A stretch of 64,000 bases of DNA from Streptomyces paludis (GTDB taxonomy: Bacteria; Actinomycetota; Actinomycetes; Streptomycetales; Streptomycetaceae), in NCBI RefSeq assembly GCF_003344965.1, contig NZ_CP031194.1, forward strand, positions 1,860,001 through 1,924,000. Reading direction: 5' to 3'. The position numbers and the translations under genes were made by a program. Positions 39,455-59,800 of this stretch are shown one piece after another. Positions within the stretch are counted from its first letter, which is position 1. Each line of letters begins with the position of its first letter. A model generated the notes under the pieces. The model was not told where the DNA came from. It saw only the letters and a program-made list of their open reading frames with translations, and made no database searches.

Positions 39455-41440
39455 ATGTCGGAACCGAGTCAACAAGGCTTCGCCGTCAATCTGCTTGGCC
39501 CCCTCCGCCTGCGAATGGGCCACCGCGAACTCACCGTGGGGCCGCCCAAACAGCAGGCCGTCCTGGCCCTGCTCGCCGGCCACCGGGGCGCCGTCGTCAG
39601 CCGCGCGCAGATCGTGGACGCGCTCTGGGGCACCGAAGCCCCCTCCTCGTCCGCCAACGCCGTACACACCTACGTCGCCGGACTGCGCCGTACCCTCGAA
39701 CCCGACCGCGGCAGCCGGGACTCCGGCGCCTTCCTCGTCTCCCGGCCCGGCGGCTACGAACTCCGGCTGCCCGCCGAGGCCGTGGACTCCGCGGTGTTCG
39801 TGGACCGCTACCAAGGAGCCAGGAAGCTGGCCGCGGCCGGCGAGGCCACGGCCCTCGACCGCTTCGAGTCGGCGCTCGCGCTCTGGCGCGGTGAGGCCCT
39901 CGCGGGGATCCCCGGGCCGTACGCGGCGCTGGAGCGCACCCGGCTGCGCGAGCTGCGCTACGCCGCCACCGAGGGCTGGCTCGCCGGACTGATCGACGCC
40001 GGCCGGTACGAGGCCGCGATCGTCGCGTCCGCCGACGCCATCGCCCAGGAGCCGCTGCGCGAGCCACTGCGCCGCCTCAGCATGGTGGCGCTCTACCGGA
40101 GCGGCCGGGCCGCCCACGCGATCCGGGCGTACGACGAGACCAGGGCGCTGCTGCGGGAGGAGCTGGGGATAGACCCCGGCCCCGAGTTACGCGAGCTGCA
40201 CCGACGCATGCTGGCCGGTGACCTGGCGGATGACCTGGCCCCCGGCCCCCGGCCGCCCCGCCAGTCCCCGGGACCCACCCCCGGCCCAACCCCGGCCTCA
40301 CCGGCCCCCGTTCGGAGGTCCACGCCCGTACGCTGGTCGCCTCCCCATCAATTGCCCCCGGCGGCACGTGTTTTCGTGGGCCGGGACACGGAACTCCGTC
40401 ATGCGCGAGGCGCGTTGATGGCGGACCCCGCCCGACCCGAAGGCCCGGCGCCGTTCCTGGTGATCGACGGTCCCGCCGGGGTCGGCAAGACCGCCTTCGC
40501 CCTTCAACTGGCTTACACCTGCGCGGAGTTCTACCCCGAGGGGCGGCTCCACGTCGACCTCCGCGGCACCCACCCCGCCGGGCCCCGCTCACCGGGCGAC
40601 GCCCTCGCCTGCCTTCTGACCGGCCTCGGTATCGCCGCCGACCGGCTGCCGCGGGACGTCGAGGGCCGCAGCGCGCTCTACCGGGGTCTGATGCACGGCC
40701 GCCGTACGCTCCTGCTGCTCGACGACGCGCGCGACGCCGAGCAACTGCGGCCCCTCCTGCCGCCGGGGCCCTCCGCCGTGCTGGTCACCAGCCGCTGGCT
40801 ACAGCGCGGGCTCCTGGCCCGGGAGGGTGCCCAGCGGATCGGGCTGAGCCCGCTGGACCGGCGGGCCGCGGTCGGCCTCTTCACCGGTCTGCTCGGCCCG
40901 GAGCGGTGTGCCGGCCAGAGCACGGAGATCGCCCTGCTCGCCGACTTCTGCGGGCGGCTGCCGCTGGCGATCCGTATCGCCGCCGGGACGCTGGTCGCCA
41001 ACCCCTATCTGAGCCCGCGCGACCTGGCCCGGCGCTACGCGGACCCGCGGACGCGGCTCGACCACCTGAGCGTGGACGGGGACGCCGCGACCAGCGTCCG
41101 GGCCGCCCTCGACGCGAGCCACCGCACACTGCCGCCGGACGCCGCGCGTCTGCTGTGTGCCCTGGGCCGCTCGGGCACCACCACCACCGGCCCCTCCGCC
41201 GCCGCCGTACACACCGGCGGTGACACGGCCGCCGCCTGCCGCCAGCTGGACGTGCTCGCTGACACCGGGCTGCTGGAGCGCACCGGCCCCGACGCGTACC
41301 GGCTGGCGGAACTGGTCCGTATCTACGCGGCGGAACGCGCCGACGAGGCCGACCGGGCGGCCATGACCCTGCTGTCCCTGCCACTGCGCGGCGAGATCGG
41401 CCCCGGCCGCGGCCGGCCGGAAGCCCTGGCCGCCCGCTGA
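39455..41440 (+). CDS. SARP-family pathway activator with NB-ARC module
   Basis: A 661-residue Streptomyces antibiotic regulatory protein. It has an OmpR-type winged helix (about 10-100, KQQAVLALLAGHRGAVVSRA and ANAVHTYVAGLRRTLEP), a bacterial transcriptional activation domain (about 110-255, ending IDPGPELRELHRRMLAG) and a Pro-rich linker. An NB-ARC type ATPase follows with P-loop GPAGVGKTAFALQL near residue 340, TLLLLDDAR and VLVTSRW. It stops soon after the ATPase, without the TPR tail of AfsR. Such proteins activate biosynthetic operons by binding 7-bp direct repeats on an 11-bp pitch. Exactly such repeats precede the next gene at 41510-41527, so this protein is the likely activator of the following four-gene operon. 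GGAAGG precedes the ATG. Confidence 0.93.
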   Translation: MSEPSQQGFAVNLLGPLRLRMGHRELTVGPPKQQAVLALLAGHRGAVVSRAQIVDALWGTEAPSSSANAVHTYVAGLRRTLEPDRGSRDSGAFLVSRPGGYELRLPAEAVDSAVFVDRYQGARKLAAAGEATALDRFESALALWRGEALAGIPGPYAALERTRLRELRYAATEGWLAGLIDAGRYEAAIVASADAIAQEPLREPLRRLSMVALYRSGRAAHAIRAYDETRALLREELGIDPGPELRELHRRMLAGDLADDLAPGPRPPRQSPGPTPGPTPASPAPVRRSTPVRWSPPHQLPPAARVFVGRDTELRHARGALMADPARPEGPAPFLVIDGPAGVGKTAFALQLAYTCAEFYPEGRLHVDLRGTHPAGPRSPGDALACLLTGLGIAADRLPRDVEGRSALYRGLMHGRRTLLLLDDARDAEQLRPLLPPGPSAVLVTSRWLQRGLLAREGAQRIGLSPLDRRAAVGLFTGLLGPERCAGQSTEIALLADFCGRLPLAIRIAAGTLVANPYLSPRDLARRYADPRTRLDHLSVDGDAATSVRAALDASHRTLPPDAARLLCALGRSGTTTTGPSAAAVHTGGDTAAACRQLDVLADTGLLERTGPDAYRLAELVRIYAAERADEADRAAMTLLSLPLRGEIGPGRGRPEALAAR

Positions 41441-41509
41441 CACCACGCTGACACCGCGCCCTTCCACACTGTGCTCGAACGAGTCCACGGGAAGGTGCCC
41501 CGGACACGC

Positions 41510-41541
41510 TTCAGAGCTTCTTCAGAGGTCTCGCGCACAAT
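41510..41541 (+). promoter_or_regulatory. SARP box and promoter of the diiron-oxygenase operon
   Basis: TTCAGAG occurs at 41510-41516 and again at 41521-41527, a 4-bp gap giving the 11-bp pitch of SARP sites. Eight bases after the second copy lies a -10-like CACAAT (41536-41541). Heptamer repeats ending 8 bp upstream of the -10 is the known geometry of SARP-activated promoters, where the repeats take the place of a -35 box. Predicted start near 41548, giving a leader of about 67 bases. Confidence 0.75.
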
Positions 41542-41614: not shown

Positions 41615-43027
41615 ATGTCCACCAGCACCAGTCCGGAGAGCGCCTACAGAAGCCCAACAGCCCCCGGAAGCAAGACCGCGACCGCCCCCGGGAGCCCAAC
41701 TGCCCCCGGGAGCCTGCCTGACGACCGCGTTCGCTTCAGCCGCTTCTCCCAATTCCGCCCGACCAGCGCGCCGTTCATCAAGGACAACCCGTACCACCGC
41801 CCCTTGGACCCCGAGCGCGTCGCGGCGCTCGACTGGAGCCGGCCGATCACGGAGGAGACCTTCACCTCCGACCGCAGCCTGCTCGCCAACCGCCTGCTGA
41901 TGAATGTGTACGAGAGCGATGCCCTTTTCCTGCCGGCCGCCGGACTGCGCAAGTTCGAGGCCGACTTCCACGCCTTCTACCACTCCGACAGCCGACGGGC
42001 GGGCGACCTCATCCGCCCCGAGACGGAGCGCTTCGCCTTCGGCTTCCTCGATGACACCGTCAGTGTGTCCGGGCAGTGGGACGAGGAAACCCTCCGCGCC
42101 CATCTGCGGCACGCCGTCGACCGCGCCAACAGCCCGGCCGTCCGGCCCGCCTTCGAGGCGATCCGCGCCGCGAAGAACCCCAAGGTCGCCGCCGGCAGCC
42201 AGATCGTGCAGATGGCGCTCGACGGGCTGACCGAGGCCACCGCGATGTCGCAGAACCTCGGCGGCGCCTTCGGCCCGGAGCAGAGCGAACTCTTCAAGAT
42301 CTTCGTCGACGAGTTCGGCTACGGCGTCTTCCCCGCCAAACACAGCACCCTCTTCATGGACCTGTGCTCCAGCGTCGGCATGGCGACCACCTCGCACCAC
42401 TACTGGTTCTTCTATCTGCCCAGCTCGATCGCCATCAACAACTACTTCTACTGGGCCACCCGCAACCGCACCGGTTTCTTCCGGTACATCGGTGCGATGG
42501 CCTTCCTGGAGGCCACTTTCGCGGCCTGGTTCGGCGACCTCACCAAGGTCTTCCGGGACGTGTACGGCGATACGGTCGACACGCGCTACTGCGACGAGCA
42601 CGCCCATATCGACCAGCACCACGGCCGTATGGCCATCGACGACCTGCTCATCCCGCTCGCCCGCAAACACGGGCCCGTCGCCGTCAAGGGGCTGCTTCAG
42701 GGCGTCGAGGAGATCCAGTACCTCGACCGGCTCGCGGGCGCCGACCTGCTCCGCCAGATCACCTGGGACCCGGCGCTCTCCGGGACCCCCGAGGACGCCC
42801 CGGCCGGCGCGGTCGGTGAACTCGACGCCAACAGCGCCTTCGACACCCAGGTCGCCGCCGTCGACACCCGGCTGCGCGTACTGAGCGGCGAGGCGCTCCT
42901 CTACCACTCCGCCACCGACGACCCACTGCGGGTGCCGCAGGGCAGCAGTGTGCTCGTACCGGCAGGGCGTCTGTACGGTGTACGGGCGGAGAGCCGCGCC
43001 GAGATCGCCACCGGACCCGAGGCATGA
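41615..43027 (+). CDS. SznF-like diiron N-oxygenase (haem-oxygenase fold) with degenerate cupin
   Basis: A 470-residue protein with the three-part plan of SznF, the N-nitrosourea-forming enzyme of streptozotocin: an N-terminal helical domain, a central haem-oxygenase-like diiron oxygenase (HDO) domain and a short C-terminal cupin-like domain. Candidate iron ligands are Glu207, Glu233, His243, His329, Asp333 and His336 (last three in EHAHIDQHHGR). Their spacing equals that of the SznF ligands as I remember them, each shifted by 18 residues. The C-terminal domain keeps the cupin turn GSSVLVPAGRLYG but has Tyr where motif 2 has its metal His, and motif 1 lacks HxH. I infer N-hydroxylation of an arginine-type substrate without the cupin-dependent rearrangement. 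GGAGGAG decides the ATG at 41615. First gene of the operon. Confidence 0.85.
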   Translation: MSTSTSPESAYRSPTAPGSKTATAPGSPTAPGSLPDDRVRFSRFSQFRPTSAPFIKDNPYHRPLDPERVAALDWSRPITEETFTSDRSLLANRLLMNVYESDALFLPAAGLRKFEADFHAFYHSDSRRAGDLIRPETERFAFGFLDDTVSVSGQWDEETLRAHLRHAVDRANSPAVRPAFEAIRAAKNPKVAAGSQIVQMALDGLTEATAMSQNLGGAFGPEQSELFKIFVDEFGYGVFPAKHSTLFMDLCSSVGMATTSHHYWFFYLPSSIAINNYFYWATRNRTGFFRYIGAMAFLEATFAAWFGDLTKVFRDVYGDTVDTRYCDEHAHIDQHHGRMAIDDLLIPLARKHGPVAVKGLLQGVEEIQYLDRLAGADLLRQITWDPALSGTPEDAPAGAVGELDANSAFDTQVAAVDTRLRVLSGEALLYHSATDDPLRVPQGSSVLVPAGRLYGVRAESRAEIATGPEA

Positions 43028-43467
43028 GGCCCGCCGAAGGCGCCACGGCCCCGGCGGCACCCGCGGCCCCGGCAACGCACACAACACAAGCAGCCTCCAC
43101 AACACGAGCGGCCCCCGCGGCCCGTACATCCACCACTCCGCCCCGTATCCGCGTCGAGTTCGACCGCTCCCGGCACAACGCGCTCATCGCCGGTGACGAC
43201 ATCTACTTCGCCATGGACCGCGGCAGGGCCGTCCATGTCCTCAGCAGCGCCTGCCCGCACCGGGGCGGCCCGCTGCACCTCGGTGACATCGAGGGGGAAC
43301 GGCTGCGCTGCCCCTGGCACGGCAGCCTCTTCCCGGTCGGCCGGCTCTGCGACCGGTCCCACCCCGCCGTCCGCGTCGGGAGCACCGTCACGGTGTACCT
43401 CCCCGCGAGCGAGCACCCGCCCGTCCCCGTCCACACCATGGTGCGAGCAGGAGTGAGTGCGGCATGA
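43024..43467 (+). CDS. Rieske [2Fe-2S] protein
   Basis: A 147-residue protein: an Ala/Thr/Pro-rich N-terminus of about 40 residues, then a ferredoxin-type Rieske domain. Cluster ligands are Cys77 and His79 (ACPHRGGPLHLG) and Cys96 and His99 (LRCPWHGSLF). It has no oxygenase domain and no signal peptide, so it is a soluble electron-transfer protein. It starts in an ATGA overlap with the diiron oxygenase gene and ends in another with the methyltransferase gene, so it is expressed in step with both. The simplest role is to feed electrons to the diiron centre; a catalytic role is not expected. No matching reductase is in the window. Confidence 0.9.
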   Translation: MRPAEGATAPAAPAAPATHTTQAASTTRAAPAARTSTTPPRIRVEFDRSRHNALIAGDDIYFAMDRGRAVHVLSSACPHRGGPLHLGDIEGERLRCPWHGSLFPVGRLCDRSHPAVRVGSTVTVYLPASEHPPVPVHTMVRAGVSAA

Positions 43468-44555
43468 ACCTGACCGCCACAGAAGTCGCCACCGACAGTC
43501 TCGTCATCCCCCGTGAGCCCGTGGAGGCCACCGGACCGTCCGAGAAAGCCCTCGCCCTCGGTAACGAGGCGATGAGCCGGCGTCAGTACGAGCGCGCCTA
43601 CGACCTGTTCAGCGCCGCGGCCCGCGCCGACGCCGGCGAGCGGCGCTTCCGCCGGGAGATCAACCGTGCCGTCCGCGCCCTGGTGCCCCGCTGGCACTTC
43701 GGCATGATGAACGACGCCGAACGCAACCAGGCGTACGCCCGCGCGATCGCGCGGAGCGTCGGCGCGGGGCAGTCCGTCCTCGACATCGGCACCGGCGCCG
43801 GACTGCTCGCCCTGCTGTCCGCCCGCTCCGGCGCGGACCATGTCGTCACCTGCGAAGGTGTCGACGTGGTCGCCGCCACCGCCCGCGAGATCGTCGAGCG
43901 GAACGGTTACGCGGAGACCATCACGGTGGTCTCCCGCCTCTCCACCGAGCTGCGTGTCGGCGTCGACCTGCCGCGGCGGGCCGATGTCCTGGTCACCGAG
44001 ATCTTCGACTGCGCCCTGCTCGGTGAGTTCGCACTGCCCGCGCTCCAGCACGCGCGCCGCGAACTGCTCACCCCGGACGCGACGATCCTGCCCCGGTCGG
44101 CCCGGCTGTTCGCCCAGTTCGTGGAGAGTACGGAGCTGCACTCCCTCAACCACGTCGGGGAGGTGGAGGGCTTCGACTTCAGCCCGTTCACCTCCCTCAG
44201 CTCGCTGGAGTACTTCTCCACCGCCCTCGGCAACTACCGGCACCGGCCGCTGACCGACCCGGTGGAGATCTTCCGCTTCGACTTCGGCCAGGACATCGCG
44301 CCCGCGGCGCACACGGTGGCGGCCGTCCCGGCGGAGAGCGGCACCGCGCACGCCGTCGTCATGTGGTTCGAACTCGACCTCGCGGACGGCATCACTCTCT
44401 CCAACAGCCCTTCGGACCGGGGCTCCCACTGGAAACAGGCCATTCAGACCCTGCCGGAGCCCTGGAGACTGAATAAGCACTCCCCCGTCGAGTTCCGGGC
44501 CTCCCATGATGGGCAGCGCGTTCTGGTCAGCCCCACGATCACTACCCCCGGGTGA
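43464..44555 (+). CDS. PRMT-like N-methyltransferase (SznE-like)
   Basis: A 363-residue SAM-dependent methyltransferase with marks of protein arginine methyltransferases. These are HFGMMNDAERNQAYARAI (about 78-95), the SAM loop VLDIGTGAGLLAL (105-117), a double-E loop TEIFDCALLGE with Glu179 and Glu188, and a THW-type loop GSHWKQ (320-325). The two glutamates bind the guanidinium in this family. An N-terminal TPR-like helix pair (about 25-60) precedes the catalytic core. In streptozotocin biosynthesis a PRMT-like enzyme, SznE, methylates free L-arginine before SznF acts, and the same pairing here suggests the same first step. ATGA overlap with the Rieske gene. Product methylation site cannot be read from sequence. 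Confidence 0.88.
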   Translation: MNLTATEVATDSLVIPREPVEATGPSEKALALGNEAMSRRQYERAYDLFSAAARADAGERRFRREINRAVRALVPRWHFGMMNDAERNQAYARAIARSVGAGQSVLDIGTGAGLLALLSARSGADHVVTCEGVDVVAATAREIVERNGYAETITVVSRLSTELRVGVDLPRRADVLVTEIFDCALLGEFALPALQHARRELLTPDATILPRSARLFAQFVESTELHSLNHVGEVEGFDFSPFTSLSSLEYFSTALGNYRHRPLTDPVEIFRFDFGQDIAPAAHTVAAVPAESGTAHAVVMWFELDLADGITLSNSPSDRGSHWKQAIQTLPEPWRLNKHSPVEFRASHDGQRVLVSPTITTPG

Positions 44556-44559
44556 GGTA

Positions 44560-45867
44560 ATGGCAGTCACGAATGAAGGACAGACCACCGAGGCCCAGCA
44601 TCCGGGTTCCGAGCTGCACAAGACGCTGACCGTGCCGCGGGGCATCGGGGTCGCCACCGGCATGATCATCGGCAGCGGTCTGCTCGTGCTGCCCGGCCTC
44701 GCCTATGTCCAGGTCGGCTCCAGCGCCGTCTACGCCTGGCTGTCCGCCGCCGTCGTGGTCCTTCCCCTCCTCGTCATCTTCGCCCAGCTCGGCTCCCGTT
44801 ACCCCACAGCGGGCGGCGTCCAGGGCTTCGCCCAGGCCGCGTTCGGCGCCCGGGGGTCCACCTGCGCGGCGGTGATCCTGATCGGCGCCTGCGCGTTCGG
44901 CGGGGCCGTGATGGCGATCAGCGGCGGCAACTACGTCGCGGCCCTCTTCGGCGCGAGCGGGGCCGGCGGCTGGGTGGCCCTCGGCTATCTGGTGGTCATC
45001 GGCCTGCTCCAGGCCGCCGGCTCCCGGCTGGCCGGCGGCATCCAGTCGGCCGTCACCATCGGGCTGCTGCTGCTCCTGGGCCTCGTCGCGTTCGCCCCGG
45101 TGATGGTCGACGCCGGCTCCCTCCAGGGGGCCGTGGCCGCGCCCAGCGCCTGGCTGTCCGCGATGCCGGCCGTCGGCCTGGTGTTCTTCGCGTACACCGG
45201 CTGGGAACTGGTCGCCTCGACCGCGGAGGAGTACCGCAACCCCAAGCGCGACTTCCCGCTCGTCATCGGCATCACCTTCGCGATCGTCGTCGCGCTGTAC
45301 ATCGGCATCTCCCTGGCCGTGCAACTGGTCGTCGCCCCCGGCGACCCCCTGCTCGGGGAAGCCCCGGTGGTCGCCGTACTCCAGGAGGCCCTGGGCGACG
45401 CCAGCGGCCGGGTCGCCGCGGCCCTGGGCGCCGCGATCATCTTCGCCACGCTCATGGGCGGCACCTGGGCCACCTCCCGCATCGTCTACGCGACCGCCCG
45501 GGACCGCCTCCTGCCCGCCGTACTCACCCACGTGGACGCCCGCTCCGGCGCCCCCCGCCCGGCGGTACTGCTCTCGGTCCTCATGTTCGGCGCGGTGGTC
45601 CTCGCCCACTCACTGAAACTGATCAGCCTGACCCTGGTGGTGGAGCTGTCCACCGTCAACTTCGTCATCGGCTACGCGATCTCCGTACTCAGCTACGCCA
45701 AACTCTACCGACGCCCCGCCCAACGCCTCCTGGCCGTCATCGCCGGCCTACCGGTCCTGGCGATGCTGGCCGGCTTCGGCTGGGTCCTGCTCTACCCCAC
45801 AGCCCTCCTGGCCTTCGCGGCCCTGGTACACCACACCCGCCAACGCCGCCGGCCCGCTACTGGCTAG
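44560..45867 (+). CDS. APC-family amino-acid permease
   Basis: A 435-residue membrane transporter with about twelve hydrophobic segments. The N-terminus has the APC start GIGVATGMIIGSGLLVLPGL, with the unwound first-helix motif GSG, and the sixth-helix region reads VGLVFFAYTGWELVASTAEE. The sequence is nearer the YjeH/amino-acid exporter-like branch than to the high-affinity lysine or arginine importers. It begins 4 bp after the methyltransferase stop, with GAGG as ribosome binding site, so it belongs to the operon. It may export the modified amino acid or import arginine. Convergent with the decayed gene at 45864, overlapping it by about 4 bp. Confidence 0.88.
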   Translation: MAVTNEGQTTEAQHPGSELHKTLTVPRGIGVATGMIIGSGLLVLPGLAYVQVGSSAVYAWLSAAVVVLPLLVIFAQLGSRYPTAGGVQGFAQAAFGARGSTCAAVILIGACAFGGAVMAISGGNYVAALFGASGAGGWVALGYLVVIGLLQAAGSRLAGGIQSAVTIGLLLLLGLVAFAPVMVDAGSLQGAVAAPSAWLSAMPAVGLVFFAYTGWELVASTAEEYRNPKRDFPLVIGITFAIVVALYIGISLAVQLVVAPGDPLLGEAPVVAVLQEALGDASGRVAAALGAAIIFATLMGGTWATSRIVYATARDRLLPAVLTHVDARSGAPRPAVLLSVLMFGAVVLAHSLKLISLTLVVELSTVNFVIGYAISVLSYAKLYRRPAQRLLAVIAGLPVLAMLAGFGWVLLYPTALLAFAALVHHTRQRRRPATG

Positions 45868-46861
45868 GGGCGGTCGTTGTCGATGAGGTCGTGCTGCCTG
45901 GCTCTGTTGACTTCTTCGTGCATTCGATTTATCAGGCGATCGATTTCGCGCCACGCAGTTTCATTTACACGCGCGGCCGCGTCGTCATGCCGCCACCTGT
46001 CGATGGTGCTCTCACCGACGACGCCCGCTCGACGCCGATGCCACCGAAGTCCGCGTTGAGGAGATGCCCGGCGACAAAAGTTTCGTTGGAGTAGTAAGCA
46101 CGTGCGGCATCGATGGCCGGGGGAAGCCGGGGGGTGGCGTCCGACCCACGGCCCGAGTAGCCGTACGGTCCCAGAGTCGCGGTGGCGCGGGTCCCACCCC
46201 CGTTTGTGCCACGGGCGGCGTAGTACGTCGGAGGGGCGAGGTACACAGCGTGCCGCAGCTCCGCGACATTGACCGGTATCCGCCGTCGCGGCCGCTCCAC
46301 GACGGCCGGGGTGCCGCCGCCCCCGTAGCCACCGCCTCCGCCTCCGTAGCCGCCTCCGCCGTAGCCACCACCTCCGCCTCCGTAGCCGCCTCCGCCGTAG
46401 CCGCCACCACCGCCGTATCCGCCGCCCCCGTACCCGCTTCCGCCGCCGCCTCCGTAGCCGTATCCGCTGGTGTAGGAAATGTTCCTGCTACTGGAACCCC
46501 CACCCCCGTACCCGCCCCCGTACCCGTACGGGTCATATCCGCTGCGCTGCACGACATACCCGGGGGCTCTGTGGTCACTTGCCGACTCCGCCGGGGCCCG
46601 CTGCACCGAATCGGTCTACGATGCGGGACCGGAGGGCACCTGCTGGACGGTGTCCTCCCGCCCAACGCCGCCCTCGCCACGCTGCGCCAAGTCCCGGACA
46701 GCGGCCGCGTTGCCGGCCGCCCGCTGCAACTGCTCGATCATCGCCGCGTCCATCGGCCCGCCACGGTGGACGGCATTGACAGGGGACGCACTCTGAGCAG
46801 CGCCTCCCCTGTCCCGCTTGTCCCTCTCCCCGGTACGCCGCCCTCTTCCCATATCCCGCAT
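45864..46861 (-). pseudogene. Decayed eCIS-cargo-like protein (LQRAAGNAA signature)
   Basis: Reading from ATG 46861 the product has a basic, disordered start and then MIEQLQRAAGNAAAVRDL, a signature typical of proteins associated with extracellular contractile injection systems and DUF4157 toxins. At 46616-46618 an in-frame TAG follows PSGPAS; the same frame then continues TDSVQRAPAESAS and VVQRSGYDPYGYGG, with the VQR motifs common in such proteins. Next come a long Gly/Tyr-rich linker (about 46300-46560) and a C-terminal region ending FVAGHLLNADFGGIGVE. Near 46010 the coding signal shifts frame and continues ESTIDRWRHDDAAARVN to a TAG at 45864. One nonsense and one frameshift make an intact product unlikely. 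Sequencing error would be the alternative. Confidence 0.65.
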
Positions 46862-47243
46862 AGCCCGCGCTCGTCCCCTCGATCGACGATCCCGCTTCCC
46901 GGTCAGTCTCCGACCACGACCGCGCCCCGGGCAATCGGAACGGAGGGCACGATTTCCGGCTTCGGGGGCAGCGATCAGAGTGCCGATGGCATAAACGTGC
47001 TGGACTTCCGCACGACCGGCACATATGAGCAGTGGACGACATCCAGGACGGGCAATTGCTCGCGGTACGGCCGGCGCCAGAAGGCGGCCCTGGAAAACCA
47101 GCCGAGTTATGCATACAAGGCAGTACGTGACCTCGCGCAAAACATTAGCAACTGAAGGCCCCAGACCCCCCCTATCGTGAAGCGATCACCACTACGCCGA
47201 CCCGGCTCAGGAGCCGCGTGATCACTGCTGGAGGATGTGGCGC

Positions 47244-49981: not shown

Positions 49982-52900
49982 GTGGCGGGGCGTCGTGAGG
50001 TGCCGGTGGATCCGGCGGCGGGGCCGGTACAGCGGTTCGCGTGCGACTTGCGCGATCTGCGGGCCGGGGCGGACGGAATCACCTACCGGTCGCTGGCCCG
50101 GCGGGCGGGCTACTCGGTGACCACGCTGTCGCGGGCCGCGGCGGGCGAGCAGCTGCCGACCCTGCCGGTGGCCCTGGCCTATGCGGGGGCGTGCGGGGGC
50201 GACCCGGCGGAATGGGAGGCCCGCTGGCAGAAGGCCGCGGAGGAGTCCGCCGGCAACGGCACTCGGGCCGACGACGCGGCACTCGCGCCGTACCGGGGGC
50301 TGGCCCGGTTCGAGACAGGGGACAGCGGCCTGTTCTTCGGACGGGAGCACCTCACCGCCGACCTGGTCGACCTGCTGCGCCGCCGGCGGTTCGCGGCGGT
50401 CTTCGGCCCCTCCGGCAGCGGCAAGTCCTCTCTGCTGCGGGCCGGCCTGATCCCCGTACTCCAGCACGCTCAGGAGCCGGACCTGCGTCCGGCCGCGATC
50501 CGGATCCTGACGCCGGGGGCACGCCCCGCCCGCGGCCACGCGGCCCTTCTGACACCCGCGCTTCCCCGCGCCGGCGACGCCGCCTCCGTAGCCGGGACGG
50601 ACACGTTTGTGATCATCGACCAGTTCGAGGAGGTCTTCACCCTCTGCCACGACGCGGCCGAGCGCGCTCGCTTCATCGATCTGTTGCTGACGGCCCGGCG
50701 GCCCGAGAGCCGCCTGCGCGTGCTGCTGGCGGTGCGCGGCGACTTCTACGGCCGCTGCGCCGAACACCCCGGCCTGGCCGACGCGCTGCGCGATGCCAAC
50801 CTGCTGGCCGGCGCGATGAGCCAGGCGGAGCTGCGCGACGCCGTCGTCAAGCCGGCCACGGCCGCCGGGCTGACCGTGGAACGCGCCCTCACCACCCGGC
50901 TGGTCAAGGAGGTCACCGACGCGCCGGGCGGGCTGCCGCTGCTGTCCCACGCGTTACTGGAGACCTGGCGTCGCCGCCGTGGCAAGACACTGACCATGGC
51001 GGGGTACGAGGCGGCCGGCTGCCTGGACGGCGCGATCGCCAGGACCGCCGAGAGGGTCTACGGCGGATTCACCGAGGACCAGGCGGCCACCGCCCGCCGC
51101 GTGCTGCTCCGCCTGGTCGCCCCCGGCGACGGCACCCCCGACACCCGCCGTCCCGTCAAGCGTGCGGAACTGCCCACTACCGGCCGGGACGACACCGCCC
51201 AGGTGATGGAGGCACTCGCGCGGGCGCGGCTGCTCGCCCTGGACGGCGATACGGTCGAGATGGCCCACGAGGCCCTGATCACGGCCTGGCCCCGGCTGCG
51301 CGAGTGGACCGGGGAAGACCGTGAGCGCCTGCGTGTGCACCGGAACCTGACCGAGGCCGCCCACACCTGGCGGGAACTGGGGCACGAAAAGGAGTCTCTG
51401 TACCGAGGAAGCAGGCTCGCCGCCGCCCAGGAACACTTCGGCGGCGCACCGCGCGAGGACCTGACCGATACGGAGCACGCTTTCCTCGACGCCAGTCGCG
51501 ACCACGAGCGGAAGGGCCGTCGCCGCTCCCGTCTGGTGCTCACCGCGGTCACCGCCGCCCTGTGTCTCGCCCTCGTCGCCGCCGGCCTGGCCGTGGGGCA
51601 GTGGCGGAGCGCGGTCAGCGCCCAAGAGCTGGCCCAGTCCCGGCAACTGGCCGCCCAGTCCGGCGCGTTGCTGGACTCCGAGCCCGATCTCGCCTCACTG
51701 CTCGCTGTCCACGCCTACCGGACCAGTCCGACCCGCGAAGCCGCCGCCGCCCTGTACGCCGCCGCGGCGCTGCCGCTGCGCAAGACCCTGACCGGCGGCA
51801 CCCAGCCCGTGGGTTCCCTCGCGCTCAGCCCGGACGGACACACCCTTGCCACCCACAGCCGGGACGGCAAGGTACGGGTCTGGAATCTGCCGGGAGGCCG
51901 GCTCCGGCACACGCTCACAGCGGGAGACCTCGGTGAAGTCGCGGCGTTCAGCCCCGACGGACGCACCCTCGCCGTCGCTGCCCTCGATGGCACCGACTGG
52001 GTCATCGCCCTGTGGGATCCCGTCACCGGCAGGAAACTCAGAGACTTCGCCGTCCCCGACGGTTCGGTACGCGAAATGGCCTTCAGCCCGGACAGCCGCA
52101 CCATGGCCGCCACCTCCCCCTCGGTCGTACGGGTGTGGGACGTGGCCACGGGCCGCACCCTGCACAGCTTCACCAGCCACCCCGACCCGCTGACGGTCGC
52201 CTTCGGCCCGGACGGCCGTACGGTCGCCACGGTGGGCCACGGCGGAGAAGTGCGGGTGTGGGATACGGCCACCGGCCGCACCCGGACCGCTCACGACAGC
52301 GAATCCGGGGGCAGGGCGGTGGCGTTGAGCCCTGACGGCAGAACCTACGCGGTGGTCCGCGCCGATGGTCCCGTGCAACTGCGGGAGACGGCCACCGGCA
52401 TGGTCCGGCGCACCATCAGGGACGTTCCCATCGGATTGAACGAGGTGACTTTCGCCCCGGACGGCCGCACCCTCGCCACCCTGGGCCCCGGGGACACCGT
52501 CCAGCTGTGGGACACCGCCTCCGGCGCCCCGCAGGCCACCGTGACCGCCGGTCACCACGGCCGGGGAATCATGAGAGTGGCCCTGGGCGCGGACGGCCAC
52601 ACCCTTGTCACCAGCAGCAATCTGGACCCCGCCGTCCGCGTCCACCGCCTGTCCGCCGACCGCTCACGGACCACTCCGCCGGGCCAGACCACCACCTATA
52701 TCGCCGGCATGGCGTTCAGTCCGGACGGACGCACGATGGCCACGGTTCGCCAAGGGCCGCCCGGCGGTGGATCGGCGCAGCTCTGGGACGTCAGGACCGG
52801 TGATCGCGAAGCCACACTGACGCTCGACTCCGGGTCCAACTCCGCCTTCGACCTCGACTCCGACCTTGCCCCCAACTCCGACTCCGACTCCAACTCCCAC

Positions 52901-53764
52901 TCCGACCCGTCGCTCCGGAAGAAGCAGCCGCTCGTCATGGCGTCGCGCCTCGGTGCTGTGGGGTTCAGCCCGACCGGGCGCGCCCTGGCCGCCAGGGCCG
53001 TCAAGAACGGGGTGATCGAGGTACGGGACCTCGCCACCGGCCGGCTTCGCCAGAGCCGTGCCCTGGACTCCACCGACACGGCGGTCTTCAGTCCCGACGG
53101 AACACGGCTCGCCGTTGTCGGCATGAAGGGGTCGGTACAGATCTGGCACCTCTCCACCGGCGCGCTGCACACCGTCCACACCGGCCACGGCCAATCCGTG
53201 AGGACCATCGCGTTCACCCCGGACAGCCGCACACTCGCCGTCGTGGACATCGAGGCCAACGGCGAACAGATCACACTGCTCGACGCCGAGACGGGCCGCA
53301 CACAGCACACCATCGACCCGGACACCCGGAGCCCGCTGTCCCTCGCGTTCAGCCCGGACGGGCACACCCTGGCGACCGTGAGCAGCAGAAACGGGGTCGT
53401 CAAGACATGGGACACGCGCACCGGTCGGCTCCAGGGCGGCTTCAGTCTCAGCGCTGAAGCCGCGTCGCCGGCCTTCAGCCCCGACGGACGCACCCTGGCG
53501 GCGAGCAGCCTGAGAGGAATCCAGCTGTGGGATCTCGCCACCGGCCGCCCGAGAATCACCCTGCCGCCCCGCTCACTCGCAGCACTGGCGTTCAGCCCGG
53601 ACGGACGGACCCTGGCCATCAGCACGGGCAGCTCCGTCCAGCTGAGAAGCATCGACCTGCCCGACCCCGCCCACGCGATCCGTAGCATCTGCGAGGCCAT
53701 CGGCACCGGCCGTACCGCCCCGGAGCAGCCCCCGGAGACCGGCTGCCGGTCAGCCGCTCGATGA
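49982..53764 (+). CDS. XRE-STAND NTPase with 14 WD40 repeats
   Basis: A 1260-residue signalling protein. An XRE-like helix-turn-helix (about 10-75, LARRAGYSVTTLSRAAAGEQ) is followed by an nSTAND1 NTPase with P-loop FGPSGSGKSSLLRAGL (near 140-155) and FVIIDQFEEVF. A helical region and a transmembrane helix (about 519-540) lead to fourteen WD40 units recognised by motifs such as FSPDGRTLA, enough for two seven-bladed propellers. A Ser/Asp-rich linker (about residues 945-980) separates blades 8 and 9. GTG start after GGAGGGGGTGAAGG. STAND proteins act as ligand-gated switches in stress, development or phage defence in actinobacteria; the specific trigger is unknown. Confidence 0.9.
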   Translation: MAGRREVPVDPAAGPVQRFACDLRDLRAGADGITYRSLARRAGYSVTTLSRAAAGEQLPTLPVALAYAGACGGDPAEWEARWQKAAEESAGNGTRADDAALAPYRGLARFETGDSGLFFGREHLTADLVDLLRRRRFAAVFGPSGSGKSSLLRAGLIPVLQHAQEPDLRPAAIRILTPGARPARGHAALLTPALPRAGDAASVAGTDTFVIIDQFEEVFTLCHDAAERARFIDLLLTARRPESRLRVLLAVRGDFYGRCAEHPGLADALRDANLLAGAMSQAELRDAVVKPATAAGLTVERALTTRLVKEVTDAPGGLPLLSHALLETWRRRRGKTLTMAGYEAAGCLDGAIARTAERVYGGFTEDQAATARRVLLRLVAPGDGTPDTRRPVKRAELPTTGRDDTAQVMEALARARLLALDGDTVEMAHEALITAWPRLREWTGEDRERLRVHRNLTEAAHTWRELGHEKESLYRGSRLAAAQEHFGGAPREDLTDTEHAFLDASRDHERKGRRRSRLVLTAVTAALCLALVAAGLAVGQWRSAVSAQELAQSRQLAAQSGALLDSEPDLASLLAVHAYRTSPTREAAAALYAAAALPLRKTLTGGTQPVGSLALSPDGHTLATHSRDGKVRVWNLPGGRLRHTLTAGDLGEVAAFSPDGRTLAVAALDGTDWVIALWDPVTGRKLRDFAVPDGSVREMAFSPDSRTMAATSPSVVRVWDVATGRTLHSFTSHPDPLTVAFGPDGRTVATVGHGGEVRVWDTATGRTRTAHDSESGGRAVALSPDGRTYAVVRADGPVQLRETATGMVRRTIRDVPIGLNEVTFAPDGRTLATLGPGDTVQLWDTASGAPQATVTAGHHGRGIMRVALGADGHTLVTSSNLDPAVRVHRLSADRSRTTPPGQTTTYIAGMAFSPDGRTMATVRQGPPGGGSAQLWDVRTGDREATLTLDSGSNSAFDLDSDLAPNSDSDSNSHSDPSLRKKQPLVMASRLGAVGFSPTGRALAARAVKNGVIEVRDLATGRLRQSRALDSTDTAVFSPDGTRLAVVGMKGSVQIWHLSTGALHTVHTGHGQSVRTIAFTPDSRTLAVVDIEANGEQITLLDAETGRTQHTIDPDTRSPLSLAFSPDGHTLATVSSRNGVVKTWDTRTGRLQGGFSLSAEAASPAFSPDGRTLAASSLRGIQLWDLATGRPRITLPPRSLAALAFSPDGRTLAISTGSSVQLRSIDLPDPAHAIRSICEAIGTGRTAPEQPPETGCRSAAR

Positions 53765-53889: not shown

Positions 53890-56800
53890 TCAGTCCTCCG
53901 TCACCTCCCGCAGCAGTTCCGTGAAGCCCTTCCCCCACGCCTCGACGGTCTCGTGGGTGAACAGGTCCGTGGAGTACTCCAGGGTGACGGTGATGATGTC
54001 CGCCGCCGGCACGACGACGAAGTACAGCTCGTTGCGTGCCACCCCCGAGGTGGGCAGGTCCCGTACGGTGGCCCGCGCCGAACGGAGGTCCAGGGTGGGG
54101 GGCGGGGTGGTGACCACGGTGAACAGGACCGTGGGGAAGGGCGCGTCCCCGGTGCCGGGCGAGACGAGTTCGACCACGTCGTTGAGCGGCAGGTCCTGGT
54201 GGTCCAGTGCGGTGAACAGGGCCGAACCCAGCTGTGCCACCAGGCCGGCGAAGGTTTCGGCCTCGCCGATACGGGCGCGCAGCAGGACCGCGTCGCCCAG
54301 CATGCCGACCGTACCGGCGTGTTCGCGCCGGGTGCGGTTCGCGCTGGAGGCGGCCAGCACCACGTCGGAGGAGCCGCCGCGGACTCCGGCCGCCCAGGTG
54401 GCGAAGGTCGCGGCCAGCACGGTGTACGGGGTTGTGCCCAGACGCGTGGCGGTGTGCGCGAGCTGCCCGGGGATCTTCCCTTCGACGGTCCAGGTGTGCA
54501 GGGCGCCACGGCCGGAGAGCGTCTGTGGCCTCGGCCGGTCGCAGGGCAGGGCGAGATCCAGGGTCGCGCCGTCGAGTTCGGTGCGCCAGAAGCGCTCCAG
54601 TTCCGCTCTGCGGGTGGGGTCCAGAGCCTGTTCCGCGCGGGCGAAGTCGGTGAACTGCGAGGTGGGCGGCGGCAGTTCCTTGCCGTCACCGTGGTTCCGG
54701 GTGCGGTACAGCTCCTGGAGTTCGCGGTGGATGACGCCCATCGACCAGCCGTCGCAGACGGCGTGGTGGAAGACGGTCACCAGGACCCAGTGGTCAGGTC
54801 CGCACCGGGCCAGCCGGAAGCGGAACAGCGGCGCCCGGTCCATGTCCAGCGGCCGGGAGGCGTGTTCCTGGCACCAGCGCTCGACGGCGGTGTCGTCCCC
54901 GGCGTGGGCGGACAGGTCGGTGACCGGCAGCTCCACGGGAACCTCGGGCAGCACCTCGACGAGGTACTGCCCGTCGCGCCGTACGGCCCGGCTGCGCAGG
55001 GCGTGATGGCGGGCCACCAGGTCCTCCAGCGCGCCCGCGAGGTCGCGGGGGGACAGGTCGCCGCGCAGGTCGATGCGGTGGGCGACGTTGTTGACACCGG
55101 GGTCGCTCAGCCCGTGGTGCCGTCGCCACAGTCTGCGCTGGGTGGCGGTCATGGGCACGGTCTCCACCGGCCGTACGGCGGGGGCCCGGCGGGTTCCGTG
55201 TGCCGCGATGCCCCGGATCGTGGGGTCGCGGAAGAACTCCGCCATGGAGATCTCGATCTCCAGCTGGTCCGTCACGCTGTTCAGCAGCCTGATCGCGCTC
55301 AGCGAGTGGCCGCCCAGTTCGAAGAACGACCGGGTCACCGGCGCCCGGTCCACACCGAGTTCGTCGCACCACAGTTCGTGCAGGGACTTCTCCAGCGGGG
55401 TGGCCGGCCGGCCGTCAATGTCCGGGCCGTCGCCCGCGGGCTCCGGCTCGGGCAGCCGGGACCGGTCGAGTTTGCCCGCGGCGTTCACCGGGAGCCGGTC
55501 CAGCCGCGCCCAGCGGCTCGGCACCAGGTGGCCGGGGAGCCGGGCGCCGAGTGCGGCGCGCAGTGTGGACAGGTCGTCCGACGGGGTCGAGGGAACCACG
55601 TACGCGACGAGTTCGGTGTCGCCGTGCCGGTCGCGTACGGCCACCACGGCGGCATCGCGAACCCCGGCGACGGCGCTCAACGCCGTTTGTACTTCGGCCG
55701 GTTCGACGCGGTGGCCGCGGATCTTGACCTGCTCGTCGGCGCGCCCGAGGTACTGGAGCGAGCCGTCGGCGCGCCAGCGCGCGAGGTCTCCGGTGCGGTA
55801 GCGCCGGGCCCCGGTGCCGTCGTCGAGGAAGGCGGCGGCGGTCTCGGCGGGCCGGGCGTGGTAGCCGAGGGCGACCGGCGTACCACTGACGTGGATCTCC
55901 CCGACGGCCCCCCGGGGTACGTCCCGGCCGGCGCCGTCCAGCAGCCGGATCCGCGCTCCCGGCACAGGTGTGCCGATGGGCGGCCACTCGCCGTCGTCGC
56001 CGGGACGGACCCGGTGCGAGGTGACGATGACGGAGGCTTCGGTGGGCCCGTACTGGTTGTAGAGCGCGCACCGCGGGTGCGCGGTGAGGAACCGGCGGAA
56101 GGACGGAGTGAGCTGGAGGGCCTCGCCGGCCGAGAACAGCTCACGCAGGGACGGCAGTTCGGGGGCGGTGTGGATCAGGTACTTCAGTGGTGTGCAGGGC
56201 ATGAACATCCGCTGCACCTCATGGCGGCGTACCGTCTCGGCGACGGCCGCCGGGTCGTTCCGTGCCGCGTCGTCGATGAGGACGAGCGCCGCTCCGCAGG
56301 ACAGCGTGGTGAAGATCTCCTGGACGCTGACGTCGAAGGAGGGCGAGGTCCACTGGAGGGTACGCAGCGCCGGGTGGCGGGCCAGGTGCCCGCGTACGAG
56401 GTGGGCCGGGCCGCGGTGCGGTACGACGACCGCCTTGGGGCGTCCGGTCGATCCGGAGGTGTAGATCCAGTAGGCGGGATCCTCGGGGCGGGCCGCCCTG
56501 TCGTCGGTCAGATCGTGGGCCGCCGGGGCGGTCCCGTCGGTGCGGTAGGTGCCGTCCTTGTCATCCGTGTCGTCCACCAGGTGTACGGGCAGACCGGGCG
56601 CGAGCCCCGGATGCCGGGCCAGGGTGGTGCCGCTGGTCAACAGCAGGGCGGGGGTGGCGTCTTCGAGGAGCGCGGTGAGCCGCGAGGTGGGCACGGCGGG
56701 GTCGATCGGCAGGTACGCGGCGCCGCTCTTGAGCACCCCCAGCAGTGCGGTGATCAGTTCCGGGCCCCGGGGCAGCAGCACCGCGACCCGCTCGCCGCGG

Positions 56801-59800
56801 CCCGCGCCCAGGGCGCGCAGCCAGTGGGCGAGCGACTCCGCGCGGGCGTCCAGCTCCTGGTAGCTGACACTGTTCTCGTCGTCCACGAGGGCGACGGCGT
56901 CCGGTGTCCGCCGGGCCTGCTGCTCGAAGAGCCCGTGCAGGACGTCTTCGCTGGCGGGTGCCGGTTCGTCCAACTGCCCCCACCGGGCGATGCTCTCGCG
57001 GTCGGCGGCGGTCACGGCGGTGAGTTCGTCCAGCAGTGCGCCGGGGGTGTCGAGGGCGCGGCGCAGTACCTGCTCCACGTACTCCACGAGGCGGCGCACG
57101 GTGCTCTCGTCGAAGAGGGCCGTGTCGTACTCGGCCATGAACCGCACACCGGTGCGGTGGTGGGTCAGGTAGATGCCGATGTCGAAGGGGGCGCGCGGGC
57201 TCGGCATGTCGAGCAGGGCGGCCGTCAGGCGGGGCGGGTCGAACTCCACCTCGCTCTCGTTCTCGTACTCCACCATCACCTGGAAGACCGGGGTACGTCC
57301 GGCGTCCCGCCGCGGGTTGAGCGCCCCGACCAGCTCGTCGAAGGGCACGTCGCGGTGCTCGTACGCCGCGCTGCTGCTGTCCCGTACGCGGTGCAGCAGG
57401 GCCGGGAAGTCCGGTTCGCCGGTGAGGTCGACGCGCAGCGGCACGGTGTCGAGGAAGAGGCCGACGTGGTGTTCGGCGCCGGCGGGCCGGGCGGCGACCG
57501 CGGTGCCGAGGACCACGTCCTGTTGTCCGCTGAACCGGCCGAGTACGGCCGCGACCGCGCCGGTCAGTGCCATGAACGGGGTGACCCGGTGGGAGGCGGC
57601 GAACTTCCGCAGCCTGCCAGTGAGTTCGGCGTCGAGATGGTGGGTGAGGCTGGCTCCCGCTCCCGAGCGGACCGGGGGGCGGGGCCGGTCGGTGGGCAGC
57701 GAGAGTTCCGGGGCCCCGGCCATCTCCCGCCGCCAGAAGTCGAGGGAGGGGGAAGGCCCATTGGACCCGGACGCGGCGTCGGACCCGGACGCCGACGCCG
57801 GGTCCGGCGCCGCCTCGGTCAACTCCGGCAGCCCGGCGTCTCCGTCCGGCCCCGCGCGGTAGAAGGCGGCGATGTCACCGACGAGCACCGCTGTGGAGGA
57901 GGAGTCGAAGACGATGTGGTGGGCCAGCAGGAAGAGCACATGCCGCTCCGGTGACAGGCGCAGCAGCCGCGCCGTGACCAGCGGTCCGTCGGCCAGGTCG
58001 AGGATCCGGCGCCCCTCGGTCGCGAGGACCGCGGCCAGGGCTTCCTCCTCGGTCGCCCCGCTGTGGTCGTCGACCGGGCAGTCGAGCCGTATCCGGTCAA
58101 CCGTCTCCTGGTAGGGCACTCCGTCGGCGGTCCGGAAGACCGTGCGCAGCGCCGGGTGCCGGTCCGCGGCCCGCTGGAGCGCCCACCGCAGTGTCCCGGT
58201 GTCCAGCGGACCGTCCAGCCGGACCGCCTTGGGCTCGTGGTACATGCTGCTCCCCGGATGGAGCTGCTCCAGGAACCAGATGCGGCGCTGCGCGGGCGAC
58301 AGCGGCTTCCGCCGGCGCGTGAGCACCGTACGTTCCCGTGTCGCGGTCTGTTCCCGGCGGCGGACCCGGTCGAGTACCGGCAGCGCGGCCAGCACCTGTC
58401 CGGCCGGCACCCCGAAGTCCACGAAGCAGGCGATCTCGTCCGCGCCCGCGTCCACCAGGCGGCGTACCGTCTCGGCGGCGGTGTCCTCGTCGCCGATGAG
58501 GGCACGTGACTCGCAGTAGCGCTCGTAGGCGCGGCCGAGCAGGAACTCCACGTCCTCCTCGGCGGTGTTGGCGAGGTCCACCTGGAACCCCAGGCTGTTG
58601 GTGACCTGGTCGAAGAGGGAGAGCGAGGAACGCAGATACGACACGAAGGGCCCGTACGCCTCGGCCTTCGCCCGCTCCGCGTCGTCGCCGAGGTACGTGT
58701 GCACCAGCACCACGACCCGGCCGGCCGCGGGGTCGAGCCCGTGCTCGGCGCGGGTACGGCGGTAGAGCGCGATGTTCTCCGCCAGCTGCTCCACGGTCTG
58801 GGTCATCAGGTTGGTGACCACCCCGAGGTCCTCGACGGCCGCCCGGCGGTAGCTGTCCGGGTTGCCGACGATGGCCACGTACATGGGGATTTGCGGCTGT
58901 ACGGGACGGGGTTGCAGGGATATCTCGACCGGCTTGCCGTCGCCCGCGACCGTGGCGTACGGCTGCCCGGACCAGAGCTGCCGTACGGTGGCCAGCTGCT
59001 CGTACATCACCTCGCGGTGCCGGCCGAAGTTGTGCGGGGCGAGGGTGAAGTCGGTGGCGTGCCAGCCGTTGGCGATGCACAGGCCCGCCCTGCCGCCGGA
59101 GATGTTGTCGACCACCGACCACTCCTCCGCGACCCTGACCGGATGGTGCAGGGGCAGCACGACCGAGCCCGCGTGCAGCCGGATACGGCTGGTCCTGGCC
59201 GCGAGCGCGGCGGCGAGGACGGAGGGGTTGGGGAAGAGCGCGCCGAAGGAGTTGAAGTGGCGCTCCGGGAACCACAGGGCGTGGAATCCGTGGGTGTCGG
59301 CGTACTCCGACGCCGCCATGATGAGCCCGTACTTGTCGTGGGCGGCGGTCTCGGGGTAGTCACCGAAGAAGTAGAGGCTGAAGTCGCACCCGGTGGCGGA
59401 GACCGGATCCGGCGCGCCGAGCGCCGGTACGGGAAGCGCCGGTACGGGCGCTGACGCTGAGGCCGGGGCCGGGGCCGGGGCCGGGGCGACAGGCACGAGG
59501 GCCGGAACCGGAACCGGAGCGGCCTGCGCCGGGGCCGGGACAGCGGCCGTCGGCGTTGCGGTCCCCGCGAGCACATCGAGCTGGCGGGAGATCACTCCGG
59601 CCACTTGGTCGATGAGACTCTGCGTCATTCTGAGCTGCTGCCCGAACAGCTCATGGAGTTCCGGGGAGGACCCTGCGGGCGCGGAGACAGAGACGGGCAC
59701 AGACACAGGAACAGACGGTACGGATACGGGCAGCGGCGCGGACCCAGGTGCGGCCCCCGCGCCCGTCGCCTGCCGGGGCGGCTCCGTGGGACCGGCCGCG

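What the first reader, a model, noticed from the sequence alone, without database searches (positions are those of the whole stretch)
41615..45867. SznE/SznF-like arginine N-oxidation cassette with its own Rieske protein and permease
Seen: a four-gene operon (two ATGA overlaps, then a 4-bp gap) of a haem-oxygenase-fold diiron oxygenase, Rieske protein, PRMT-like methyltransferase and APC permease. The oxygenase has Glu207, Glu233, His243, His329, Asp333 and His336, matching the SznF ligand spacing (from memory) at a constant offset of 18. The methyltransferase has double-E and THW-like loops that bind guanidinium. Known: in streptozotocin biosynthesis SznE methylates L-arginine and SznF N-hydroxylates and rearranges it. 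Inference: this operon makes an N-methyl, N-hydroxylated arginine product.
Basis: partly seen in the sequence, partly recalled or inferred. Interest (0 to 1): 0.9.

Follow-up and report, generated by a model that had tools for sequence, protein, structure and literature searches.

The report
Arginine N-oxidizing operon, nitrosation site lost
A small Streptomyces operon carries a natural 'half' version of the enzyme that builds the anticancer drug streptozotocin: the oxygen-adding half looks intact while the nitroso-forming half has lost its metal site, so it probably makes and exports an N-hydroxylated, N-methylated arginine rather than a nitrosourea.

Summary
In detail: 41615-45867 holds a tight four-gene operon (SznF-like diiron oxygenase, Rieske protein, PRMT/SznE-like methyltransferase, APC permease). 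None of the three His is kept in 9 of 9 window-clade loci; a sister clade of tandem oxygenases, mostly Actinomadura, has partial sets. The Rieske gene is not special to this operon: it follows the oxygenase in 38 of 40 live-oxygenase loci fetched (the other two are cut by contig ends), streptozotocin-type ones included, and was not found in 3 of 3 fully covered relatives with a dead diiron site. It is therefore probably the oxygenase's electron donor. In S. lateritius the operon with its SARP gene is followed by polyphosphate kinase, so it looks self-contained there. Substrate and product are untested. New variant of a known kind.

The parts
39455..41440 (+). AfsR-like SARP regulator (Trans_reg_C + BTAD + ATPase), directly upstream
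   Evidence: the upstream gene in L002 is 61% identical
41509..41527 (+). Putative SARP operator: CTTCAGA(G) direct repeat with 11-bp period (TTCAGAG at 41510 and 41521)
   Evidence: same repeat and period in L002 (which has the SARP neighbour), no exact repeat upstream in L003, L005, L008 (5 of 9 window-type upstream regions examined); 61 of 5000 shuffles of the 174-nt region give an exact 7-mer repeat at that spacing; 16 such repeats in the whole window
41536..41541 (+). -10-like CACAAT, 8 nt after the second repeat (9 nt in L002)
   Evidence: sequence; its role is an inference
41615..43027 (+). SznF-like haem-oxygenase-fold diiron N-oxygenase with a degenerate C-terminal cupin
42233..42622 (+). 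Seven diiron ligands E207, E233, H243, E299, H329, D333, H336
   Evidence: same letters in 57 of 57 rows
42848..42976 (+). Lost cupin iron site: Q412, A414, Y454 in place of SznF H407, H409, H448
43024..43467 (+). Rieske [2Fe-2S] protein, proposed electron donor of the oxygenase (C77, H79, C96, H99)
43464..44555 (+). PRMT7/SznE-like arginine methyltransferase
44560..45867 (+). APC-family amino acid permease, probable exporter or exchanger of the product

Best explanation
A self-contained arginine-modifying pathway under SARP control. The SznE-like methyltransferase puts one methyl group on the guanidine of L-arginine (giving Nω-methyl-L-arginine). The SznF-like diiron oxygenase, reduced by the neighbouring Rieske protein, hydroxylates the guanidine nitrogens. 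Because the cupin that rearranges this intermediate to an N-nitrosourea in SznF has lost all three iron ligands, the pathway stops at the hydroxylated stage (Nδ-hydroxy- and/or Nδ,Nω-dihydroxy-Nω'-methyl-L-arginine). The APC permease moves that amino acid out. Shown by sequence: family membership, intact diiron ligands, lost cupin ligands, Rieske linkage, operon structure. Inferred: substrate, product, electron flow, direction of transport.
For: Homology over residues 56-460 to SznF, 38% overall and 48% in the HDO core. The 7 diiron ligands are the same in 57 of 57 locus rows, while 0 of 9 window-clade rows keep any of the three cupin His. In SznF, H407/H409/H448 substitutions accumulate the dihydroxylated intermediate (PMC11705231 passages). 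The HDO core is the most constrained part of the gene (omega 0.03 and 0.07 in two pairwise comparisons). Cupin-lost rows (22 of the 52 given to the tree) lie on one side of a 100/100 branch; all 52 lie opposite the szn rows. Oxygenase-Rieske adjacency: 34 of 36 loci, the other two cut by contig ends, plus 4 of 4 distant live loci; not found in 3 of 3 fully covered dead-HDO loci. PRMT gene in 35 of 36 loci, with double-E and HW motifs in all 35 and in PRMT7. In L002 the next gene after the permease is polyphosphate kinase. AGT (alkyl-DNA repair) motif: 3 of 8 loci with intact cupin triad and live HDO, 0 of 32 cupin-lost loci, Fisher p 0.006. No convincing SznF-like cupin elsewhere in the genome (best E 0.36).
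Against: No substrate or product data. 27 of 155 HDO-core columns differ consistently between szn and window clades, several next to ligands (for example szn P/F/S to L/G/T at 202/204/206). The selection test does not single out the cupin: its remnant (omega 0.24 and 0.42) is no more relaxed than the N-terminal domain (0.31 and 0.36), so it may keep a role. In one search one near relative (P0029) keeps H448. Two of four distant live loci (L068, L069) show no PRMT match. Three of eight window-type relatives (L005-L007) have NRPS-like domains near the cassette. AGT and Rieske counts are on related loci; HHH loci with a dead HDO also lack AGT (0 of 4). The dihydroxyarginine made by ChmN was gone after a week at room temperature, so a dihydroxy product might not persist. 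No structure model could be made.
Confidence: 0.55

Rival explanations
1. The oxygenase has been re-purposed: same diiron fold and same operon, but a different guanidino or amine substrate or a different oxidation (for example a single hydroxylation, desaturation or C-hydroxylation), with the methyltransferase acting on another guanidine.
For: 27 type-specific columns in the HDO core; HDO chemistry is very diverse (PMC13108848, passages); tandem-type relatives carry two diverged oxygenases, and 19 of those loci an amidinotransferase.
Against: A PRMT/SznE-like gene in 35 of 36 loci and 48% identity to SznF in the core, with its 3H/4C ligand set kept.
Confidence: 0.24
2. The product is an amino acid building block for a nonribosomal peptide, such as that of the NRPS/PKS gene at 53890-64000 (-).
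For: An NRPS/PKS lies about 8 kb away in the window. NRPS-like domains lie near the cassette in 3 of 8 window-type relatives, the Pseudonocardiaceae L005, L006 and L007; in L006 a C-A-T gene is divergent from it.
Against: No match to the window's C, A or KS domains in L002, L003, L004, L008 or L009 (5 of 8); in L002 a housekeeping gene follows the permease; the window NRPS is on the other strand behind unrelated genes; the cassette has its own permease.
Confidence: 0.14
3. A full streptozotocin-type N-nitrosourea pathway: the cupin still works with other ligands, or another cupin acts in trans.
For: Sources name close relatives 'nitrosourea synthase' (P0011, P0015); most tandem-type rows keep one, and 8 of 43 keep two, of the three His.
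Against: All three His are gone in 9 of 9 window-clade rows; published substitutions abolish the step; no convincing SznF-like cupin elsewhere in the genome; no AGT motif in the window and no match in it to the ATP-grasp or MFS queries.
Confidence: 0.06

Closest known systems
SznF/StzF with SznE (streptozotocin biosynthesis; PDB 6m9r, 6m9s, 6vzy)
   Same: Oxygenase alignable over the N-terminal domain, HDO and cupin region, all 7 diiron ligands, SznE-like methyltransferase and adjacent Rieske gene in four szn-type loci L059-L062. Those loci are called szn-type by 72-88% identity to SznF, not by name.
   Different: The cupin 3-His iron site is absent; no ATP-grasp genes; an APC permease; cluster reduced to four genes plus SARP. 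Gene order also differs (PRMT-HDO-Rieske there), but an intact-cupin Pantoea locus has the window's order, so order is not a marker.
ChmM/GrbD/MobE-type SznF homologues (chalkophomycin, gramibactin, tistrellabactin)
   Same: SznF relatives in which one of two catalytic halves is lost.
   Different: The converse: diiron site dead, cupin HHH kept (L064-L066, L072), with hydroxylation shown for the haem enzyme ChmN in chalkophomycin biosynthesis (PMC10849742, sections 6 and 11). No Rieske gene was found in L064, L066 and L072; L065 is cut on its downstream side.
Tandem-oxygenase clusters of Actinomadura, Actinoallomurus, Dactylosporangium and a Micromonosporaceae MAG (L010-L032 without L031; 20 complete)
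   Same: Sister clades of the window oxygenase, same HDO-Rieske-PRMT order.
   Different: A second oxygenase, partial cupin ligand sets, and in most an amidinotransferase, ATP-grasp enzymes and an MFS transporter.
MboA-MboB (mangotoxin HDO and its redox partner)
   Same: An HDO with a dedicated redox partner in the operon (PMC13185094, passages).
   Different: MboB is an NAD(P)H/flavin/Fe2S2 reductase; here the partner is a small Rieske protein with no reductase gene in the operon, and the oxygenase is of the 3H/4C SznF type.

Membership tests
SznF-type N-oxygenase (HDO half) | Seven diiron ligands (3 His, 4 carboxylates) at SznF positions | tested here: met
   EEHEHDH in the window and in 57 of 57 locus rows; 119 of 121 proteins (exceptions P0037, P0057)
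SznF nitrosourea synthase (whole enzyme) | Cupin iron site H407/H409/H448 | tested here: not met
   Q412/A414/Y454; 0 of 121 proteins have HHH
SznF nitrosourea synthase (whole enzyme) | Conversion of Nω-methylarginine to an N-nitrosourea | not testable with these tools
   needs an enzyme assay
SznE/PRMT-type guanidine methyltransferase | SAM motif, double-E loop and THW-like HW motif | tested here: met
   DIGTGAGLL from residue 107, E179/E188, H322-W323
SznE (free L-arginine Nω-monomethyltransferase) | Activity on free L-arginine | not testable with these tools
   38-41% identity to the szn-locus methyltransferases, 35% to PRMT7
Rieske [2Fe-2S] protein | CxH...CxxH cluster ligands | tested here: met
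   motif in 34 of 34 Rieske proteins
Dedicated electron donor of SznF-type oxygenases | Genetic linkage to live, not dead, oxygenases | tested here: met
   38 of 38 assessable live loci; not found in 3 of 3 fully covered dead-HDO loci (a fourth, L065, is cut downstream)
Dedicated electron donor of SznF-type oxygenases | Reduces the diiron site | not testable with these tools
   needs a biochemical assay
Streptozotocin-type (szn) gene cluster | ATP-grasp genes beside SznE/SznF | tested here: not met
   ATP-grasp matches in 4 of 4 szn-type loci, none in the 64-kb window at E 1e-6

The most novel reading that the evidence does not exclude
A naturally split-off class of SznF enzymes, working as stand-alone guanidine N-hydroxylases with a dedicated Rieske electron donor, makes and secretes a free N-hydroxylated Nω-methylarginine: a small amino acid antimetabolite or NO-pathway effector produced by three proteins and one permease. 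By extension, the Rieske protein is the physiological reductant of all SznF-type enzymes with a live diiron site, streptozotocin's included.
Probability: 0.37. Interest if true: 0.75.

Novelty: new variant of a known kind. Interest (0 to 1): 0.6.

Why it matters
It gives a natural experiment on SznF, with oxygenase kept and rearrangement site lost, and predicts a new arginine-derived natural product. It warns that the source name 'nitrosourea synthase' on such proteins is probably wrong. It also offers a concrete candidate, present in every assessable live locus, for the electron donor of SznF-type oxygenases; [quoted passage not shown]

Tried and rejected
Rejected: 'the Rieske gene makes this operon unusual' - szn-type loci and distant proteobacterial and cyanobacterial loci have it too. 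Rejected: a reciprocal-loss model for the tandem oxygenases (one keeping H409, the other H448) - 8 of 43 tandem-type rows keep both. Rejected: the upstream GTG start at 41471 - the homologue L002 aligns from the 41615 ATG and the SARP repeat lies between the two. Led nowhere: structure prediction (switched off); wider searches for more loci: window type in 246 genomes of the class (only the own genome), dead-HDO type in 14 genomes of one family (only the one known) and in 246 of the phylum (none); primary SznF papers not held. Row cautions: L029_6799 has an unreliable C-terminus (667-aa open frame) and was kept in the counts; L012 and L031 are two contigs of one genome and probably two parts of one cluster; of 159 proteins passing only the best 120 were listed and examined.
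Full report
OBSERVATION. The window lies in an 8.45-Mb genome that I take to be Streptomyces from its nearest relatives; it is not named. The four genes are present at the stated coordinates with two ATGA overlaps and a 4-bp gap. The oxygenase matches SznF over residues 56-460 (E 8e-86). The methyltransferase matches PRMT7 (E 6.5e-52) and has a double-E loop and HW motif. The third gene encodes a Rieske domain with all four cluster ligands; its nearest solved relatives are Rieske domains of oxygenases and small Rieske proteins, at weak E-values (1.5e-6 at best). The fourth is an APC permease whose best NCBIfam model is the L-methionine/branched-chain amino acid transporter, at 159 bits against a cut-off of 284.

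SznF has two catalytic sites: the HDO diiron site hydroxylates Nω-methylarginine twice, and a mononuclear iron cupin rearranges the product to the N-nitrosourea. A review reports that substitutions of H407, H409 and H448 in the cupin led to build-up of the dihydroxylated intermediate (PMC11705231, passages). In the window protein these positions are Q412, A414 and Y454. Among the 121 proteins (the query and the 120 listed of 159 hits, one of them the window's own protein), 119 keep the seven HDO ligands and none has the HHH triad; among P0001-P0041, the closest, only P0029 keeps one of the three His. In 57 locus rows the HDO ligands are EEHEHDH in 57; HHH is found in 5 (SznF and four szn-type loci); none of the three His is kept in 9 of 9 window-clade rows; the 43 tandem-type rows keep one or two. 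In a tree of 34 rows (22 of the 52 cupin-lost rows, 8 HHH rows with live HDO, 4 HHH rows with dead HDO; drawn with a midpoint root) the cupin-lost rows are one side of a 100/100 branch, with long-branch warnings for L066, L071 and L072. Between the window gene and L002 and L003, omega is 0.03 and 0.07 in the HDO core, 0.24 and 0.42 in the cupin remnant, 0.31 and 0.36 in the N-terminal domain, and 0.42 and 0.80 in the linker (own Nei-Gojobori script): the oxygenase core is tightly kept, and the remnant is no more relaxed than the N-terminal domain. The claim that the cupin is dead rests on its ligands, not on selection.

THE RIESKE PROTEIN. In one search, 34 of 36 loci have the Rieske gene next to an oxygenase; the two without (L017, L031) are cut by contig ends there. 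This includes four szn-type Streptomyces loci (order PRMT-HDO-Rieske). Four distant plasmid loci with live HDO and HHH (Azospirillum, Gloeothece, Methylobacterium, Pantoea) also have HDO-Rieske. In relatives whose diiron ligands are lost but whose cupin is HHH, no Rieske motif or convincing tblastn match was found in L064, L066 and Tistrella L072, each covered on both sides in 18-19 kb (best weak match E 0.02); L065 is also without one, but its downstream side is cut by the contig end. The loci are related and the dead set is small, but the pattern is what a dedicated electron donor predicts. Two full-text searches found no paper in the held library that links SznF to a Rieske protein (the one paper with both words, PMC13108848, uses 'Rieske' for other enzymes in the passages I saw); the primary SznF papers are not held, so I do not claim that it is unreported.

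SURROUNDINGS. Three arrangements share the core. szn type: PRMT-HDO-Rieske with ATP-grasp matches in 4 of 4 and an MFS match in L059 and L060. Tandem type (20 complete loci, 3 truncated): HDO-Rieske-PRMT-HDO, with an amidinotransferase (AGAT family, E 1e-110) in 19 of 23, plus ATP-grasp and MFS genes. Window type: HDO-Rieske-PRMT in 9 of 9, with an APC permease in 6 of 9 (same strand in 5); L006 and L007 have an MFS transporter nearby instead. In S. lateritius L002 the neighbouring SARP gene is 61% identical and the gene after the permease is polyphosphate kinase, so the pathway looks complete in four genes there. In three Pseudonocardiaceae (L005-L007) NRPS-like domains lie near the cassette; in L002, L003, L004, L008 and L009 none matched. 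Azospirillum L068 has HDO-Rieske-permease (permease 35.5% identical) with no PRMT match in the locus. The own genome has a single SznF-like gene at E 0.001 and no convincing SznF-like cupin elsewhere (E 0.36).

REGULATION. A CTTCAGA direct repeat with an 11-bp period lies 88-106 bp before the oxygenase start, 8 nt before CACAAT; L002 has the same repeat and period. L003, L005 and L008 show no exact repeat; the other four relatives were not examined. SARP sites are generally heptamer direct repeats with 4-15 nt spacers (PMC10972967, passages). 61 of 5000 shuffles reach such a repeat and the whole window holds 16, so the conservation in L002 is the stronger argument.

SELF-RESISTANCE. The alkylguanine-DNA-alkyltransferase motif appears in 3 of 8 HHH/live loci (L061, L062, L071, the last beside an annotated ada gene), in 0 of 32 cupin-lost loci and in 0 of 4 HHH/dead-HDO loci (3/8 against 0/32 gives p 0.006, loci not independent and of unequal length). 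This fits a non-alkylating product here but is weak.

HOW IT LIKELY WORKS. Methylation of arginine, Rieske-fed hydroxylation, no rearrangement, export. What sequence cannot settle: the substrate (27 HDO-core columns are type-specific), the number of hydroxylations, and the direction of transport. The closest precedent for losing half of SznF is the converse case ChmM (PMC10849742: outline, abstract, sections 6 and 11, and passages seen). That paper aligned 426 SznF homologues and shows ligand diversity in its Figure 1D, which I could not see, so this class may already be visible there; the text I saw discusses only the HDO-dead class.

Noticed in passing
53890-64000 (-): Large hybrid NRPS/PKS gene running off the window: ketosynthase, acyltransferase, luciferase-like monooxygenase, two condensation domains, one full adenylation domain and three carrier domains.
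   Followed up: partly
49982-53764 (+): 1260-aa open frame that looks like an N-terminal helix-turn-helix, NTPase and WD40-like repeat protein; judged by eye only.
   Followed up: no
45965-47140 (-): Glycine-rich open frames with a motif (LQRAAGNAAAVRDLAQR) that from memory resembles DUF4157-type proteins linked to contractile injection systems.
   Followed up: no
L073:6600-8100: Rhizobium leguminosarum plasmid: an unannotated SznF-like oxygenase stretch whose frame stops after the HDO part, followed by a Rieske gene; possibly an independent loss of the cupin, or a decayed gene.
   Followed up: partly
L068:6884-9925: Azospirillum plasmid p5: SznF-like gene with complete HDO and cupin ligands, Rieske and amino acid permease, no methyltransferase match found; a possible unmethylated counterpart.
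   Followed up: partly
L012-L029, L032: Tandem-oxygenase clusters in Actinomadura and relatives with an AGAT-type amidinotransferase, suggesting transfer of a modified amidino group or a guanidino-peptide product.
   Followed up: partly
L071:5748-6824: Pantoea dispersa plasmid: an ada alkyl-DNA repair gene directly before an intact-cupin HDO-Rieske-PRMT-MFS-ATP-grasp set, a likely self-resistance gene.
   Followed up: partly
P0011, P0015: Close cupin-lost relatives carry the source name 'nitrosourea synthase', which the missing cupin ligands speak against.
   Followed up: yes
L006:6041-9178 (-); also L005, L007: Kutzneria: a C-A-T NRPS gene lies divergently beside the same cassette, and L005 and L007 have NRPS-like matches nearby, so in some lineages the product may enter a peptide.
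   Followed up: partly
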